DNA of 38,016 nt from Lachnospiraceae bacterium (GTDB taxonomy: Bacteria; Bacillota; Clostridia; Lachnospirales; Lachnospiraceae): the NCBI GenBank assembly GCA_030524525.1, contig JAUNGI010000024.1:1-38016 (forward strand), given 5' to 3'. Of the stretch, positions 781 to 15,970 are shown one piece after another (positions within the stretch are counted from its first letter, which is position 1; the number at the start of each line of letters is the position of its first letter). Below the pieces are notes generated by a model, which worked only from the letters and a program-made list of their open reading frames with translations, had not been told where the DNA came from and searched no databases. A program made the position numbers and the translations under genes.

Positions 781-857
781 ACGATATAAAGTTATTTTTT
801 GAAGTTTCAGGCGCGCCGGGAAGGCGTGTCGATGCTGTATAATTTGCATAAAAAATT

Positions 858-954
858 GCAGAGTAGAATTGTGTGCGTTAAGTGTCGGAAGAACGGGGAG
901 TTGTCTTCCGAACGAAAAGAGAGATCTTGCGGTACACGGTTCGCATCCCGCTGC
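858..954 (+). promoter_or_regulatory. Class I tetrahydrofolate (THF) riboswitch upstream of folT
   Basis: The segment carries the conserved THF-I landmarks in order: AGTAGA (862-867), GCGTTAAGTG (875-884), AACGGGGAGTTG (892-903), AACGAA (911-916), GCGGT (929-933) and GCATCCCGCT (943-952). Pairing fits the fold: P1 GCAG/CTGC (858-861 with 951-954), P2 TTGTGT/ACACGG, and P3 TCGGAAG/CTTCCGA. The pseudoknot pairs CGGG (894-897) with CCCG (947-950). A TATAAT at 838-843 could be the -10 box, but no good -35 is seen. The class senses reduced folates; the downstream folate transporter and folate ligases agree with this. No clear terminator follows, and the Shine-Dalgarno at 997-1004 is close by, so translational control is likely. 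Confidence 0.88.
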
Positions 955-1010
955 TACCCTTGGAAAATTTCCTTTCGTAGCTCAGAATACGGGACAGAAA
1001 GGAGATTTTT

Positions 1011-1592: not shown

Positions 1593-2862
1593 CGCAGACA
1601 TGACCTTTGAAGAAGCGATAGAAGCGCTGTGGAACGAGAACACAAGGATTTCCAAGCCGGGGATTTCCAGAGTGCGGGAGCTGTTGGCGCTTTGCGGCCA
1701 CCCGGAAACCCGGTTTCCCATCGTTCATATTGTAGGCACCAACGGAAAGGGCTCGGTCACCGCCATGCTTTCGGGCGTTTTGCATGCCGCGGGCTATCGA
1801 ACCGGAACGATGATGTCTCCGTTTCGCGAGAGCGTTTACGACTATTACCGAATCGCGGAAGAGCTTCCGGAAAAGCCGAACTTCTGCCGTGCGGTCGCCA
1901 AGGTGCGGAAGGAAGCGGAGCGGATGGAAGACGCGCCCACCGAATTTGAACGCTCGGTTGCGGTGGGGCTGCTCCTGTTTGCCGGAGCCGGATGCGATAT
2001 CGTCCTTTTGGAAGCGGGAATGGGCGGCGGAAACGACGCGACGCATGTGACCGAACACAGCCTTCTGACGATCGTAACGCACATGGCGCTGGATCATACC
2101 CAATGGCTCGGCGGGACGCTTGCGGAAATCTTAGGGGAAAAGCTAGGGATCGCCGGAAGCGGCGACGCCGTTTTGCTTGGACCAAACGAAAAAGAAACCG
2201 TGGAGCTTGCGGAACGGATCGCTCGGCAGCGAGGGCTTGGGCTCACGGTTTGTCATGGAGAGGCGCAGATCGAAGCCGACGGCACGCTTTCCTATCAAAC
2301 ATGGAAGTCCCTTCGCCTGTCCCTACAGGGGAGCTATCAGAGGCGGAACGCCGTTACGGTGCTGAACGCGCTGCCGATTTTGGCGCGGAGGGGCTTTCCG
2401 GTTCCGGCGGACGCCGTTCGGGCCGGTCTTTCTCGGACCGAGCTGCCCTTTCGTTTTCAGATCTGCCGGCAAGAGCCGTACCTGATCTTCGACGGCGGAC
2501 ACAATCCCGACTGTGCTGCGGCGCTCTGCGAATCGCTTGGGGCACTGCCGAAGAAGGAGCCGTTTTCGGTGGTGACCGGAGTCATGCGGGATAAGGCGTA
2601 CGATCAAATGTATCCGCAGATCGACGCGTTTGCGGGAGAGTATCTGACGGTCACGGCGGACAATCCGCGTGCGCTTTCCGCGCCGGAGCTTGCCGCCTAC
2701 CTGCGGCGTTTCGGCAAGCCGACGGAGGAAGCGGCGGATTTTTCGCAGGCGGCGGAGTGGATCCGTCTTCGACTGGAACAAAAGAAACCGGTACTGGTGA
2801 CCGGCACATTATACATGATGCAGGCTTTAACCGCTGCATTAAAAGCGAGGCAAATAATTTGA
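1570..2862 (+). CDS. folC: Folylpolyglutamate synthase / dihydrofolate synthase, copy 1
   Basis: A 430-residue Mur-ligase-like enzyme that adds glutamate to folates (and, in bifunctional members, to dihydropteroate) with ATP. Visible are the P-loop VGTNGKGSVTAML (about residues 56-68), the Mg/Omega region EAGMGGGNDATHV, the HMALDH motif, and the C-terminal FDGGHNPD motif followed by VTGVMRDK. The start ATG at 1570 has GGGGAAGG upstream and overlaps folT; an in-frame ATG at 1600 (MTFEEAIEAL), just after the folT stop, is an alternative that matches the usual family N-terminus. The Omega-loop residues differ from the common GGRLDATN form. A second paralogue follows immediately, so the two may divide synthase roles. 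Confidence 0.88.
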   Translation: MEEREKDNADMTFEEAIEALWNENTRISKPGISRVRELLALCGHPETRFPIVHIVGTNGKGSVTAMLSGVLHAAGYRTGTMMSPFRESVYDYYRIAEELPEKPNFCRAVAKVRKEAERMEDAPTEFERSVAVGLLLFAGAGCDIVLLEAGMGGGNDATHVTEHSLLTIVTHMALDHTQWLGGTLAEILGEKLGIAGSGDAVLLGPNEKETVELAERIARQRGLGLTVCHGEAQIEADGTLSYQTWKSLRLSLQGSYQRRNAVTVLNALPILARRGFPVPADAVRAGLSRTELPFRFQICRQEPYLIFDGGHNPDCAAALCESLGALPKKEPFSVVTGVMRDKAYDQMYPQIDAFAGEYLTVTADNPRALSAPELAAYLRRFGKPTEEAADFSQAAEWIRLRLEQKKPVLVTGTLYMMQALTAALKARQII

Positions 2863-4142
2863 ACTATGAGGAATTGGTCACCCGTCTGACCTCAAAAAGC
2901 TTTTTTTCACCGTCCGCAGGACTGTACCGGATGAAGAAAATGATGGAGCACTTTGGCAATCCGGAGGAAAAGCTTTCGTTTATTCATGTGGCGGGAACGA
3001 ACGGAAAGGGCTCCGTCTGCGCCATGCTGCACGGCGTTCTGAAAGAAGCGGGCTATCGGGTCGGGCTGTTTACGTCCCCCTATATCCACGATTTTCGGGA
3101 GCGGATCCAGATCTCCGGCGAGTGGATCGCCAAGGAAGAGCTGTTGGAAATCGGAGAGGAGGTTCTTTCGTACACCGAAAAGCTGTATGAAGCGCCCAAT
3201 CAGTTTGAGCTTCTGACCGTCATCGCGCTGCTGTACTTTGCAAGAAAACAGTGCGACGTCGTCGTTCTGGAGACCGGACTTGGCGGAACCTACGATTCCA
3301 CCAACGTGATCCCCCAGTCCCTCGTCAGCATCATTACCAATATCGGCTTGGATCACTGCGCGGTTTTGGGCGATACGATCCCACGGATCGCGGCGGCAAA
3401 AGCGGGGATCATCAAGCCGCACGGAAACGTTATTTTATATCCTTCCGAAAAAGAAGCGCTGGATGTGATCACCGCCGCGGCGCTGAAGCAGGACGCGCGC
3501 TTGGTTTATGTGGAAAAAAGCGACGTGCATCGGCATACGGCGTCTCCGGATCGGGAGGAGATGGAATATAAGGGGATGCAGGTACGCCTTTCCCTGCTTG
3601 GCGAGCATCAGTGCTATAACTGCGCGCTCGTGCTGGAGGCGGTACGCATCCTGAATCGGGGAGCCTTTTTCATCAGCGATTCGGACATTCTGACCGCGCT
3701 CGAAAAGGTTTCGTGGCCCGGAAGGCTGGAGCTGGTACACCTCAGTCCGAGGGTCTATGTGGACGGCGGTCACAATCCGCAGGGCATCCGGGCGGTTCTG
3801 GCGTTTTTGAAGGAGCGTTTTCCGGAGCAGAAGCACTATTTTGTCGTCGGGGTCCTGAAGGATAAGGATTACCGCACGATGCTTACCGCATTGAAGGAGG
3901 ATGCGGAGAAGCTGTATTTTCTGCGGGTCCCCCATCCGCGCGGCTTTTCGGAGGAGGAATGCGAGGCGCTGTGCGGGGAATACGGCATGGAGCAGGTAAC
4001 GGAGCTTCGGCCGCTGCTTCCGAAGCTGTTGGAGGAAGTCTCCGCCGAGTCGGTGATCTGCTGCACGGGTTCTTTGTATCTGGCGGATCAATTTTTGCAG
4101 GAATGGAAAGAAGAAGGTAGAATGGAGAGTGGGGAGACATGA
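2859..4142 (+). CDS. folC: Folylpolyglutamate synthase / dihydrofolate synthase, copy 2
   Basis: A 427-residue FolC paralogue. It shows the P-loop VAGTNGKGSVCAML (about residues 42-55), ETGLGGTYDSTNV, NIGLDHCAVLG, and VDGGHNPQGIRAV followed by VVGVLKDKDY. I place the start at TTG 2859. The resulting N-terminus MNYEELVTRL is typical of the family, GCGAGG (2845-2850) is a suitable ribosome-binding site, and TTG overlaps the TGA of copy 1 (2860-2862), which suggests translational coupling. A longer frame from ATG 2757 would overlap copy 1 by over 100 bp and is unlikely. The GGTYDSTN loop is closer to the Lactobacillus FPGS type (GGDTDSTN) than to E. coli FolC (GGRLDATN). The stop overlaps the next start by ATGA. 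Confidence 0.88.
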   Translation: MNYEELVTRLTSKSFFSPSAGLYRMKKMMEHFGNPEEKLSFIHVAGTNGKGSVCAMLHGVLKEAGYRVGLFTSPYIHDFRERIQISGEWIAKEELLEIGEEVLSYTEKLYEAPNQFELLTVIALLYFARKQCDVVVLETGLGGTYDSTNVIPQSLVSIITNIGLDHCAVLGDTIPRIAAAKAGIIKPHGNVILYPSEKEALDVITAAALKQDARLVYVEKSDVHRHTASPDREEMEYKGMQVRLSLLGEHQCYNCALVLEAVRILNRGAFFISDSDILTALEKVSWPGRLELVHLSPRVYVDGGHNPQGIRAVLAFLKERFPEQKHYFVVGVLKDKDYRTMLTALKEDAEKLYFLRVPHPRGFSEEECEALCGEYGMEQVTELRPLLPKLLEEVSAESVICCTGSLYLADQFLQEWKEEGRMESGET

Positions 4143-8419: not shown

Positions 8420-13659
<5,240 letters not shown>

Positions 13660-13685: not shown

Positions 13686-14447
13686 ATGGCAATTTCGGTT
13701 TCCGTCTGCGATGACGATCCCTCCCAAATCAAATATCTGTGCGGACTGCTGGACGACTGGGCGGCGGATAAGCCCTTTGGACTATCCGTCTCCGCATACG
13801 ACAGCGCCGAGGCGTTTTTGTTTGATTATTCCGACCATCCCTGCGAGCTGCTCCTGCTGGACATCGAAATGAAGCGGCTGAACGGAATGGAGCTGGCAAA
13901 ACGGCTGCGGGCGGAAGGGGATCTGCTGCCGATCGTATTTATTACCGGCTTTTCCGAATATCTTGCCGAGGGCTACGAGGTGGAAGCGCTCCACTATCTT
14001 TTGAAGCCCGTCGATCGGTCAAAGCTGTATGCGGTGCTTGACCGGTATCTGAAACGGCACGGCGGAAAATCCGCCGGAATTCTGCTGACGGGGGAGGGGC
14101 AAACCCGGCATGTGCCGCCGGAGGGCATCGTCTTTTTGGAGGCGTGCGGGCATAGGACGGAGCTTCATCTGAACGACGGAGCCGTTTTTGCAAGCGACAA
14201 AAGCATTGGAGAATGGCGTCGCCTGCTCTGCGGGGCATCGGCAGAAAGCAAAGCGGAAAACGGGCGCTTGGCGGACTTCCTACCCACCCACCGCTCCTAT
14301 CTGGTCAATCTGCGCTATGTGCGGAGCATCGGAAAGACCGAGTGCGTTTTGGATTCCGGCGAAAGCGTTCCGCTGTCCCGGCGGCTTTGGCGGGAGGTCA
14401 ACGAGAGGTTTATTCGGTTTTACGGCTGGAATTCATCCACGCGATAA
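13686..14447 (+). CDS. LytTR-family response regulator
   Basis: 253 residues. The receiver domain (about 1-120) has the acidic pocket CDDDPSQ, the phosphoacceptor Asp59 in LLLLDIEM, the Thr of FITGFSEY, and the Lys of YLLKPV. The C-terminal LytTR DNA-binding domain (about 135-245) has the usual FLPTHRSYLVNLRYVRSI stretch. Such regulators bind pairs of direct 9-bp repeats. ATG 13686 follows GGGGAGGG, 26 bp after the GH95 stop. Its expected kinase partner is not adjacent: a type III toxin-antitoxin module of about 0.7 kb lies between them. The LytTR-like repeats before the ABC genes (15973-16001) are the likely target. Confidence 0.9.
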   Translation: MAISVSVCDDDPSQIKYLCGLLDDWAADKPFGLSVSAYDSAEAFLFDYSDHPCELLLLDIEMKRLNGMELAKRLRAEGDLLPIVFITGFSEYLAEGYEVEALHYLLKPVDRSKLYAVLDRYLKRHGGKSAGILLTGEGQTRHVPPEGIVFLEACGHRTELHLNDGAVFASDKSIGEWRRLLCGASAESKAENGRLADFLPTHRSYLVNLRYVRSIGKTECVLDSGESVPLSRRLWREVNERFIRFYGWNSSTR

Positions 14448-14495: not shown

Positions 14496-14524
14496 TTGAC
14501 TTTCTTCTTTGTACTTGCTAGAAT
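14496..14524 (+). promoter_or_regulatory. Promoter of the type III antitoxin RNA
   Basis: TTGACT (14496-14501), a 17-bp spacer and TAGAAT (14519-14524), with an extended -10 TGC directly before the -10 box. This is one of the best promoters in the window. Transcription would start near 14531, just before the first antitoxin repeat. Confidence 0.85.
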
Positions 14525-14530
14525 GTAAAT

Positions 14531-14660
14531 ACAAAGAGAGTTTACCACTGACCGATATGTGGTATAAAAATGGTCGGGTTGAAAGTTTACCGCTGACCGA
14601 TATGCGGGATATAAGTGGTTGGGTTGAAAGTCTGGTCCTTCGCCGTAAGGCGAGGGACCT
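14531..14660 (+). ncRNA. cptI: Type III antitoxin RNA, CptI-like: two 45-nt pseudoknot repeats
   Basis: Two direct repeats, 14539-14583 and 14584-14628, match at 39 of 45 positions; AGT at 14629-14631 starts a third, truncated copy. In repeat 1 TACCAC (5-10) pairs with GTGGTA (21-26). In repeat 2 the core changes from CCAC/GTGG to CCGC/GCGG, a compensatory A-U to G-C substitution. The loop GACC (12-15) can pair with GGTC (34-37; GGTT in repeat 2), giving an H-type pseudoknot. Each unit ends in GAA followed by AGTTTACC, so an A-rich junction separates units, as expected where the cognate toxin cuts. Known antitoxins of this class are tandem pseudoknots that bind and inhibit the toxin. The call rests on structure and position, not on a database match. 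Confidence 0.85.
14539..14628 (+). repeat. Two tandem 45-nt direct repeats (antitoxin units)
   Basis: Units 14539-14583 and 14584-14628 are contiguous. They differ at unit positions 9, 22, 25, 29, 32 and 37. Positions 9 and 22 covary; position 37 changes a Watson-Crick pair to a G-U pair in the proposed pseudoknot. Confidence 0.95.
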
Positions 14661-14672
14661 TCTACTTTTATT
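14634..14672 (+). terminator. Terminator between antitoxin repeats and toxin gene
   Basis: GGTCCTTCGCC (14634-14644) pairs with GGCGAGGGACC (14649-14659) around a GTAA loop, with one G-T pair. The tail is TTCTACTTTTATT. In type III systems a leaky terminator here keeps antitoxin RNA in excess over toxin mRNA. Confidence 0.8.
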
Positions 14673-14700
14673 GATAAGGTTTCGGTGGTGAAGCAAACGA

Positions 14701-15183
14701 ATGAAGAAAACAGGATTTTATATTATTAAAGACAAATTTTTTGAGGATATGGCAGACCCCTATCTTAAGGGAAATAAAGCAGGCAACAGACCACACTACT
14801 ATTGCTTTGAAGAAGCGAATACAGGTATATATTGGATGATACCTTTATCCAGTAAAATAGAGAAGTATCAGAAAATCGTGGAAAAGAAAGAAAAAGACGG
14901 AAAACCTTGCGATATTATTCATATAGTCAAGCTGGATAACAGTCGGATAAGTGCCTTCTTAATTCAGGATATGTTTCCGATAACGGAGGAATATATAGAT
15001 CGAGAATATACTATTGCCGGAAACCATTTGATGCTGACCAGTGAACATACTGCCAAGGAAATTGAAAGGAAAGCGAAAAAGGTTCTGGGAATGCTGAAGC
15101 GAGGCGTAAAGTTTACACCGACGCAGCCGGATAGTATGAGTATATTTGAAAGGTTGTATTCCAAAACCAAAAAGGAAATTTGA
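14701..15183 (+). CDS. cptN: Type III toxin, CptN/ToxN-like endoribonuclease
   Basis: 160 residues. ToxN-family toxins cleave RNA at A-rich sites and are held inactive by their repeat RNA. Seen here are the N-terminal FYIIKDKFFEDM, RPHYYCF (30-36), the IPLSSK segment (47-52) that corresponds to the PLTSPK/PLSSPK active-site region of ToxN and AbiQ, and FLIQDMFPI. The sequence most resembles the CptN branch known from gut Clostridia. The start ATG 14701 has only a weak GGTGGTG upstream, which would keep toxin yield low. The gene is clearly more A+T-rich and uses more AAA, ATA and TAT codons than its neighbours, a sign of recent acquisition. It ends 10 bp before the histidine kinase start. ToxN, AbiQ or TenpN membership cannot be fully excluded. 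Confidence 0.85.
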   Translation: MKKTGFYIIKDKFFEDMADPYLKGNKAGNRPHYYCFEEANTGIYWMIPLSSKIEKYQKIVEKKEKDGKPCDIIHIVKLDNSRISAFLIQDMFPITEEYIDREYTIAGNHLMLTSEHTAKEIERKAKKVLGMLKRGVKFTPTQPDSMSIFERLYSKTKKEI

Positions 15184-15193
15184 GAGGTTTTCC

Positions 15194-15970
15194 ATGCATC
15201 CCATTTTGATTGTATTGTGCGTTTTGCTCGGCGCTGCCCTGACGCTCCTTGCCGCCGTCTGTTTGCGACGCGGGCTGTATTCCCTGATCGACCGCCGCAT
15301 CGAGCGGTTCCAAAGCGAGCTGATCGAAAAGCAGGTGTGCGAGATCGAAAATATGTACCGGCAGGTGCGGGGCTGGCGGCATGACTACCGCAACCATATT
15401 CAGAACATGAAAATTCAGTTGGACGAACGGAGCTACGATGCTCTGGAGCGCTATCTGAACGAGCTGGCGGACGACCTGAACAGCGTGGACACGGTGCTGA
15501 AAACCGGCAACGTCATGGCGGACGCCATCCTGAACAGCAAGCTTGCGGTCGCCGAACAACAGCAGATCAGGCTAAACGTAAAGGCAAGCATTCCCGAAAA
15601 GCTGCCGATGAGCGACGTGGAGCTTTGCTCCGTCCTTGGAAATATGCTTGACAACGCGGTGGAGGCGTGTGCGGCGCTTCCGGAAGACAAGCGCTTTCTG
15701 CGGGTTTATATCGGCAAACTGAAAGGGCAGTTTTATCTTTCGGTACAGAATTCCGCCGGAAGGGTGCGTAAGGAAAAGGGGACGTATCTCTCCACCAAGA
15801 AGGAGACTGGGGGAGAAAAACGGCACGGCTACGGGCTGTTCCGCATCGACCGCGTCGCAAAAAAATACGGCGGCTACGTCAATCGTCAAAACGAGGAGGG
15901 CGTGTTTGCCACCGAACTGCTGTTCCCGCTTCCTGCGGAACCCCCTTCCTCTGCGCAAACCGCCCTCTGA
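15194..15970 (+). CDS. GHKL-domain sensor histidine kinase with a single membrane segment
   Basis: 258 residues. One N-terminal transmembrane helix (about 3-25) is followed by a helical linker. The dimerisation segment WRHDYRNH carries the likely phosphoacceptor His, and a GHKL ATPase domain of the AgrC/LytS type follows (N box LGNMLDNAVEAC, and HGYGLFRI). No extracellular sensor domain is present, so it may read membrane state or a partner protein. ATG 15194 with GAGAGG upstream is preferred; an upstream in-frame ATG at 15146 lies inside the toxin gene. It is expected to phosphorylate the LytTR regulator at 13686-14447, from which it is separated by the toxin-antitoxin module. Confidence 0.85.
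   Translation: MHPILIVLCVLLGAALTLLAAVCLRRGLYSLIDRRIERFQSELIEKQVCEIENMYRQVRGWRHDYRNHIQNMKIQLDERSYDALERYLNELADDLNSVDTVLKTGNVMADAILNSKLAVAEQQQIRLNVKASIPEKLPMSDVELCSVLGNMLDNAVEACAALPEDKRFLRVYIGKLKGQFYLSVQNSAGRVRKEKGTYLSTKKETGGEKRHGYGLFRIDRVAKKYGGYVNRQNEEGVFATELLFPLPAEPPSSAQTAL

What the first reader, a model, noticed from the sequence alone, without database searches (positions are those of the whole stretch)
14496..15183. CptIN-like type III toxin-antitoxin module with covarying pseudoknot repeats
Seen: an extended -10 promoter, two contiguous 45-nt direct repeats, a hairpin terminator, then a 160-residue ORF with a PLSSK block like ToxN/AbiQ. In the repeats the stem changes CCAC/GTGG to CCGC/GCGG, and loop GACC stays pairable with GGTC or GGTT, giving an H-type pseudoknot per unit. 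Known: type III systems have exactly this layout, and the CptIN family uses short tandem pseudoknots of similar length. Two units, plus a three-base start of a third, is at the low end of repeat number. If real, it is a defence or stability module in this lineage.
Basis: partly seen in the sequence, partly recalled or inferred. Interest (0 to 1): 0.85.

Follow-up and report, generated by a model that had tools for sequence, protein, structure and literature searches.

The report
Two-unit CptIN type III toxin-antitoxin cassette

Summary
The 160-aa ORF (14701-15183) is a CptN toxin: NCBIfam CptIN 180.7 bits, cut-off 90; E. rectale CptN, PDB 4rmo, E 2.8e-77. Upstream are an extended -10 promoter, two contiguous 45-nt CptI units (14538-14582, 14583-14627) and a terminator hairpin. 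In the published phase the array is two complete units with GA before and AAG after, the context used in print for processing; the 'start of a third unit' is that context. Two units is usual for CptIN.

One correction: the second stem's register. The crystal's loop limits, and covariation in 46 of 46 distinct units, pair position 17 with 38, not 13 with 38.

The cassette (38% GC; neighbours 56-57%) fills the gap between a LytTR response regulator and a histidine kinase. It was not found in 21 other genomes of the genus and is patchy in the family (48 of 299).

New member of a known kind.

The parts
14496..14524 (+). promoter of the cassette: -35 TTGACT, 17-nt spacer, TG-extended -10 TAGAAT
   Evidence: TTGA at the same position in 61 of 76 distinct upstream sequences of relatives
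14507..14536 (.). dyad CTTTGTACTT-N10-AAATACAAAG overlapping the -10; candidate operator (inference)
   Evidence: best dyad centre of the 60-nt promoter block in 61 distinct sequences, 77% Watson-Crick cells; clear covariation at one pair only
14538..14582 (+). CptI unit 1 (type A), H-type pseudoknot; S1 8-11/22-25, S2 15-19/36-40; two differences from the E. rectale unit (1 A to G, 30 U to A)
   Evidence: phase from the CptI-WT primer in PMC4627078; pairs
14583..14627 (+). CptI unit 2 (type B), H-type pseudoknot; compensated pair 10-23 (G-C), wobble 17-38 (G-U)
14628..14630 (+). AAG, 3' processing context of the array (with GA at 14536-14537 as the 5' context)
   Evidence: GA in 59 and AAG in 63 of 64 two-unit arrays; same context added in PMC4627078 'to allow processing'
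14634..14659 (+). terminator hairpin between antitoxin array and toxin, tail TTCTACTTTT
14701..15183 (+). CptN toxin, 160-aa endoribonuclease
   Evidence: NCBIfam NF047359 180.7 bits; PDB 4rmo_A E 2.8e-77; active-site positions within the family's range
13686..14447 (+). context, not part of the module: LytTR response regulator
15194..15970 (+). context, not part of the module: GHKL (AgrC/SpoOB-type) histidine kinase, ATG 10 nt after the toxin stop

Best explanation
It is a complete CptIN-family type III toxin-antitoxin cassette of the E. rectale subtype. A strong promoter makes an RNA that mostly stops at the hairpin after two antitoxin units; read-through makes CptN. CptN cuts its own antitoxin RNA after A45 of each unit, and each 45-nt product folds as an H-type pseudoknot and stays bound, so two toxins and two RNAs close into an inactive 2:2 ring. 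If RNA supply stops (loss of the locus, or shut-off of host transcription), the RNA decays faster than the toxin and free CptN cuts cellular RNA and stops growth. This favours retention of the cassette (addiction); phage defence is possible but untested. Shown here: family membership, array, register, promoter and terminator, position in the operon, patchy distribution. Taken from the E. rectale system by homology: cleavage after A45, 2:2 ring, toxicity, plasmid stabilisation. Inferred: activity in this host, and that the downstream histidine kinase is now partly transcribed through the cassette.
For: Toxin. Of up to 100 relatives of 60% identity or more, the active-site positions keep Ser50 (99 of 100), Ser51 (97 of 100), Ser84 (98 of 100), Tyr103 (99 of 99); the window has all four, and its Lys52 (10 of 100; Arg in 65) and Asn80 (14 of 100; Asp in 86) occur in relatives (matching to the paper's residue numbers is my own count along the alignment). 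Array. Promoter and terminator. Mobility: GC 38.1% against 57.1% and 56.4% in the flanking genes; 1 of 22 genus genomes, 48 of 299 family genomes. Mechanism of the close homologue: PMC4627078, whole Results section read.
Against: No expression or toxicity data. Unit 1 has A at position 30, the 'kink' nucleotide whose deletion (not substitution) abolished antitoxicity in E. rectale CptI; but A30 occurs elsewhere, in both units of L012, and unit 2 keeps U30. The hairpin's T tract is broken (TTCTACTTTT; longest run 4, as in 23 of 94 scored arrays). Single units do not fold better than shuffles under nested folding. Pfam ToxN is under its cut-off (16.7 against 25), no Rfam family matches, and PADLOC gives only a chance-level hit.
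Confidence: 0.93

Rival explanations
1. A decayed CptIN relic: toxin or unit 1 no longer works and the locus is kept by chance.
For: Unit 1 carries substitution at the kink position 30 and at position 1, and unit 2 has an unusual G26; the terminator tail is broken. Several relatives are visibly broken: one search shows in-frame stops or fragments in some hits (for example G149, G027, G188, G173).
Against: Full-length ORF without stops; departs from a 90%-conserved residue at one position only, Asp100 for Glu; both stems paired in both units; processing contexts, promoter and toxin start all present.
Confidence: 0.06
2. The module's main benefit is anti-phage defence (abortive infection) rather than self-retention.
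For: ToxIN and AbiQ, structural relatives, abort phage infection (PMC5086642 passages). Among 99 of 140 flanking ORFs of relatives a few are defence-like, such as AbiH in 2.
Against: E. rectale CptIN stopped none of over 200 coliphages in E. coli while raising plasmid retention to 100%. No shared defence neighbourhood: the commonest Pfam family in those 99 ORFs is found in 4 (the 25 commonest families shown). Window neighbours are cell-wall, repair and sugar-degradation genes.
Confidence: 0.3
3. The cassette has been adopted as a regulatory part of the two-component operon: transcription or CptN cleavage within a regulator-antitoxin-toxin-kinase transcript sets kinase level.
For: The cassette fills the 746 nt between regulator and kinase exactly, with the kinase ATG 10 nt after the toxin stop; in related pairs the kinase can start within -3 to +16 nt of the regulator stop in 5 of 6, the sixth being ambiguous.
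Against: Only this genome shows it; a recent insertion that tolerates read-through explains the same anatomy. The compared pairs are 33-48% identical, so they are not shown to be the empty site itself.
Confidence: 0.1

Closest known systems
CptIN of Eubacterium rectale (PDB 4RMO; PMC4627078)
   Same: Toxin aligned over residues 3-153 at E 2.8e-77; 45-nt units, unit 1 differs at 2 and unit 2 at 5 of 45 positions from the published unit; same GA and AAG contexts; terminator before the toxin.
   Different: Kink base U30 is A in unit 1; catalytic-triad Arg is Lys52 and adenine-contact Asp81 is Asn80 in the toxin; sits inside a two-component operon.
CptIN of Coprococcus catus and Ruminococcus torques (PMC4627078, PMC6315513)
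   Same: Same family and layout; 46-nt units, 2.2 repeats in print.
   Different: Those toxins share 35-44% identity with each other and with E. rectale and do not cross-neutralise; the window belongs to the E. rectale subtype.
ToxIN / AbiQ
   Same: Same principle: RNase silenced by tandem pseudoknot RNA it processes.
   Different: 34-36-nt units, 2.8-5.5 copies, 3:3 ring (PMC5086642); Pfam ToxN below cut-off here.

Membership tests
CptIN type III toxin-antitoxin | toxin over the curated CptIN profile cut-off | tested here: met
   180.7 bits, cut-off 90
CptIN type III toxin-antitoxin | tandem antitoxin units of about 45 nt upstream on the same strand | tested here: met
   two 45-nt units, 84% identical
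CptIN type III toxin-antitoxin | each unit an H-type pseudoknot | tested here: met
   by homology to the crystallised unit and covariation on 22 and 46 distinct units; nested folding alone uninformative
CptIN type III toxin-antitoxin | terminator between antitoxin and toxin | tested here: met
   T tract imperfect
CptIN type III toxin-antitoxin | single promoter upstream of the array | tested here: met
   sequence match and conservation only; no transcript data
CptIN type III toxin-antitoxin | conserved RNase active site (Ser-Ser plus adenine-contact residues) | tested here: met
   Lys52 and Asn80 are minority residues of the family
CptIN type III toxin-antitoxin | processing of the RNA by the toxin, 2:2 complex, toxicity and rescue | not testable with these tools
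   needs expression and biochemistry
ToxIN | toxin over the Pfam ToxN cut-off | tested here: not met
   16.7 bits, cut-off 25
TenpIN | toxin over the curated TenpIN cut-off | tested here: not met
   22.1 bits, cut-off 90

The most novel reading that the evidence does not exclude
CptIN antitoxin arrays are not mere repeats: they are pairs of two distinct antitoxin RNAs kept in a fixed order, like two paralogous RNA genes that differ mainly in their stems, so that each transcript delivers one full set of two non-equivalent RNAs for the 2:2 ring. In the E. rectale subtype the first unit is type A (10-23 A-U, 17-38 G-C) and the second type B (10-23 G-C, 17-38 usually A-U) in 59 of 64 two-unit arrays, on both sides of the one deep supported branch. 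In six distant CptIN loci the two units are no longer recognisable as repeats yet show two pseudoknot patterns. The order and stems may matter for assembly or folding.
Probability: 0.25. Interest if true: 0.5.

Novelty: new member of a known kind. Interest (0 to 1): 0.3.

Why it matters
It adds a clean member to the E. rectale subtype of CptIN, gives independent covariation support for the crystal's second-stem register, and shows the cassette landing between a response regulator and its kinase. The family-wide order of two unit types would, if functional, turn a 'repeat' into a pair of distinct RNAs and make testable whether the 2:2 ring is built from one of each.

Tried and rejected
It pairs in nearly all units too (98.9% of cells) and is the nested minimum for unit 1, but lacks compensation at 13-38 and clashes with the crystal's loops.

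Rejected: the idea that A/B stem differences exist to stop tandem units mispairing. Under nested folding, expected inter-unit pairs are as many in AB arrays (mean 26.7, n 28) as in BB (25.7, n 7) or AA (28.8, n 1). Not conclusive, as pseudoknots are not modelled. Stem against non-stem identity between the two units of 23 arrays was lower in the stems in 14 (one by a hair), equal in 2, higher in 7, with related rows not independent: no clear excess. The pseudoknot finder had no shuffle control on those upstream regions and also returns weak hits (13-21) in places without an array.

Rejected: 'exactly two units' as a rule for the whole family. L024 and L174 show three pseudoknot patterns, and Fusobacterium CptIN has about three in print; single-unit arrays exist (L079, L085, L094).

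Inconclusive: RNA-level reading of the promoter dyad; its mismatches do not favour G-U pairing and only one pair covaries. Terminator weakness: a longest T run of 4 is common among relatives. Search for a shared neighbour gene: none (99 of the 140 flanking ORFs were given). Structure prediction was not run, since a solved close homologue exists.

Full report
Observation. The promoter TTGACT-17-TAGAAT with TG before the -10 is at 14496-14524. Two 45-nt direct repeats, 84% identical, abut each other (lag identity 0.87 against at most 0.54 in 30 shuffles). A hairpin with 11 pairs follows at 14634-14659 (z -5.8), then a 160-aa ORF.

Family. The ORF scores 180.7 bits against NCBIfam CptIN (cut-off 90), 22.1 against TenpIN (cut-off 90) and 16.7 against Pfam ToxN (cut-off 25). 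In the PDB the only match at E up to 0.001 is CptN of E. rectale, 4rmo, E 2.8e-77. PADLOC and Rfam do not name the module.

Anatomy in the published phase. PMC4627078 (abstract, passages and the whole Results section read) gives the 45-nt unit through a primer, S1/S2/L1/L2 limits, the cleavage after A45 and the GA...AAG context added for processing. Unit 1 (14538-14582) differs from that unit at positions 1 and 30, unit 2 (14583-14627) at 10, 23, 26, 33 and 38; GA precedes and AAG follows the array. The 'three-base start of a third unit' is that AAG; in relatives GA precedes in 59 and AAG follows in 63 of 64 two-unit arrays.

Register of the second stem. From 47 distinct units found in relatives 46 without N were counted. 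S1 (8-11/22-25) pairs in 45, 46, 46 and 46 of 46. S2 as 15-19/36-40 pairs in 45, 46, 46, 46 and 45 of 46, and pair 17-38 covaries (G-C 19, A-T 20, G-T 7). On 22 of the 47 units the tool's controls give 13 double-change cells for the first (shuffled mean 3.7, 0 of 500) and 6 for the second, all in the shared S1. The exact S2 pairs are my inference from the paper's loop limits. Nested folding of the units is uninformative.

Toxin integrity. Against up to 100 relatives of at least 60% identity the window keeps Ser50, Ser51, Ser84 and Tyr103; Lys52 and Asn80 are minority states (10 and 14 of 100). It departs from a 90%-conserved residue at one place, Asp100.

Relatives. Scans gave 80 loci from genome contigs (best 80 of 126), 1 of viral contigs at 54% identity, 48 of 299 family genomes, 7 plasmid records, all below 60% identity, and no phage record. 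In a phylum sample 7 of 398 genomes match the CptIN profile, 5 over its cut-off, the window's own included. Genome-contig loci named are mostly Lachnospiraceae or other Clostridia. Sets from the two genome sources overlap, so counts below use the genome contigs set where possible.

Unit number and type. Among the 80 genome-contig loci 64 show two units; of 64 loci with at least 250 bases upstream and the toxin start matched, 61 have two units and 3 have one. Type order is A then B in 59, B-B in 4, A-A in 1 of the 64 two-unit arrays. Over all 111 loci it is A-B in 71 of 82 two-unit arrays and 28 of 37 distinct arrays (overlaps and the window included). On a weakly resolved toxin tree (5 of 82 inner branches starred) the five array states need 10 changes (least possible 4, shuffled mean 12.7); the starred clade L095-L108 has A-B in 8 of 8 labelled rows and the rest of the tree is mostly A-B. 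So the two types look ancestral to the subtype, with occasional homogenisation or loss. Two repeats for gut CptIN is already in print (PMC6315513, passages with its Table 3). I found no mention of two ordered unit types in the passages and sections read of PMC4627078, PMC5086642 and PMC6315513 or in the listings; the 2012 paper that defined the family is not held, so it may be in print there.

Wider family. In 34 loci examined, 22 have a lag identity above their shuffles (in two of these, L027 and L174, the repeat found is not the antitoxin array). Ten of ten distant toxins tested are over the CptIN cut-off. In L027, L030, L166, L167, L169 and L171 the two units are not recognisable as direct repeats yet two adjacent pseudoknot patterns appear, without shuffle control. 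Stem divergence between units shows no clear excess, and nested folding gives no sign that A/B differences reduce mispairing.

Position. The cassette occupies the 746 nt between a LytTR response regulator (13686-14447) and a GHKL kinase (15194-15970). In six related regulator-kinase pairs, including one elsewhere in the same genome, the kinase can start within -3 to +16 nt of the regulator stop in five, the sixth being ambiguous. These pairs are 33-48% identical, so they model rather than show the empty site. The cassette has 38.1% GC, the flanking genes 57.1% and 56.4%, and it is the lowest-GC 746-nt stretch of the window. No match was found in 21 other genomes of the genus, 12 of them at least 90% complete and at most 5% contaminated. 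Together this says horizontal insertion between two genes of one operon. The rest of the window is chromosomal housekeeping (MutL, MreB/C, FtsK, PNPase, MinC).

Regulation, tentative. In 61 distinct promoter blocks a dyad CTTTGTRCTT-N10-ARGTACAAAG over the -10 is the best of all dyad centres tried (77% Watson-Crick cells; the next separate centre 61%), with real covariation at one pair. It may be an operator.

Verdict. A new, apparently intact member of a known kind. Mechanism follows the E. rectale system by homology; host activity and benefit are untested.

Noticed in passing
window 14507-14536: Inverted repeat over the -10 region, conserved in the promoters of relatives; possible operator, one covarying pair.
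   Followed up: partly
L095, L098, L100, L102, L103, L107, L108 upstream of unit 1: By eye, this subclade has a different long dyad (TAATATTAATAG...CTATTAATATTA) just before the first unit, possibly transcribed as a 5' hairpin; not scored.
   Followed up: no
window 857-955: THF (tetrahydrofolate) riboswitch, 94.9 bits, upstream of two Mur-ligase-type ORFs (1570-2862, 2757-4142) that may be folate-related.
   Followed up: no
window 8423-13659: Neighbouring beta-galactosidase (GH2) and GH95 glycosidase genes just upstream of the response regulator.
   Followed up: no
L016 and L105 (identical locus from two sources): CptN relative whose first 16 residues do not align and which has no recognisable CptI unit upstream: a toxin remnant or one that has lost its antitoxin.
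   Followed up: no
L024 and L174 upstream of the toxin: Three adjacent pseudoknot patterns instead of two.
   Followed up: no
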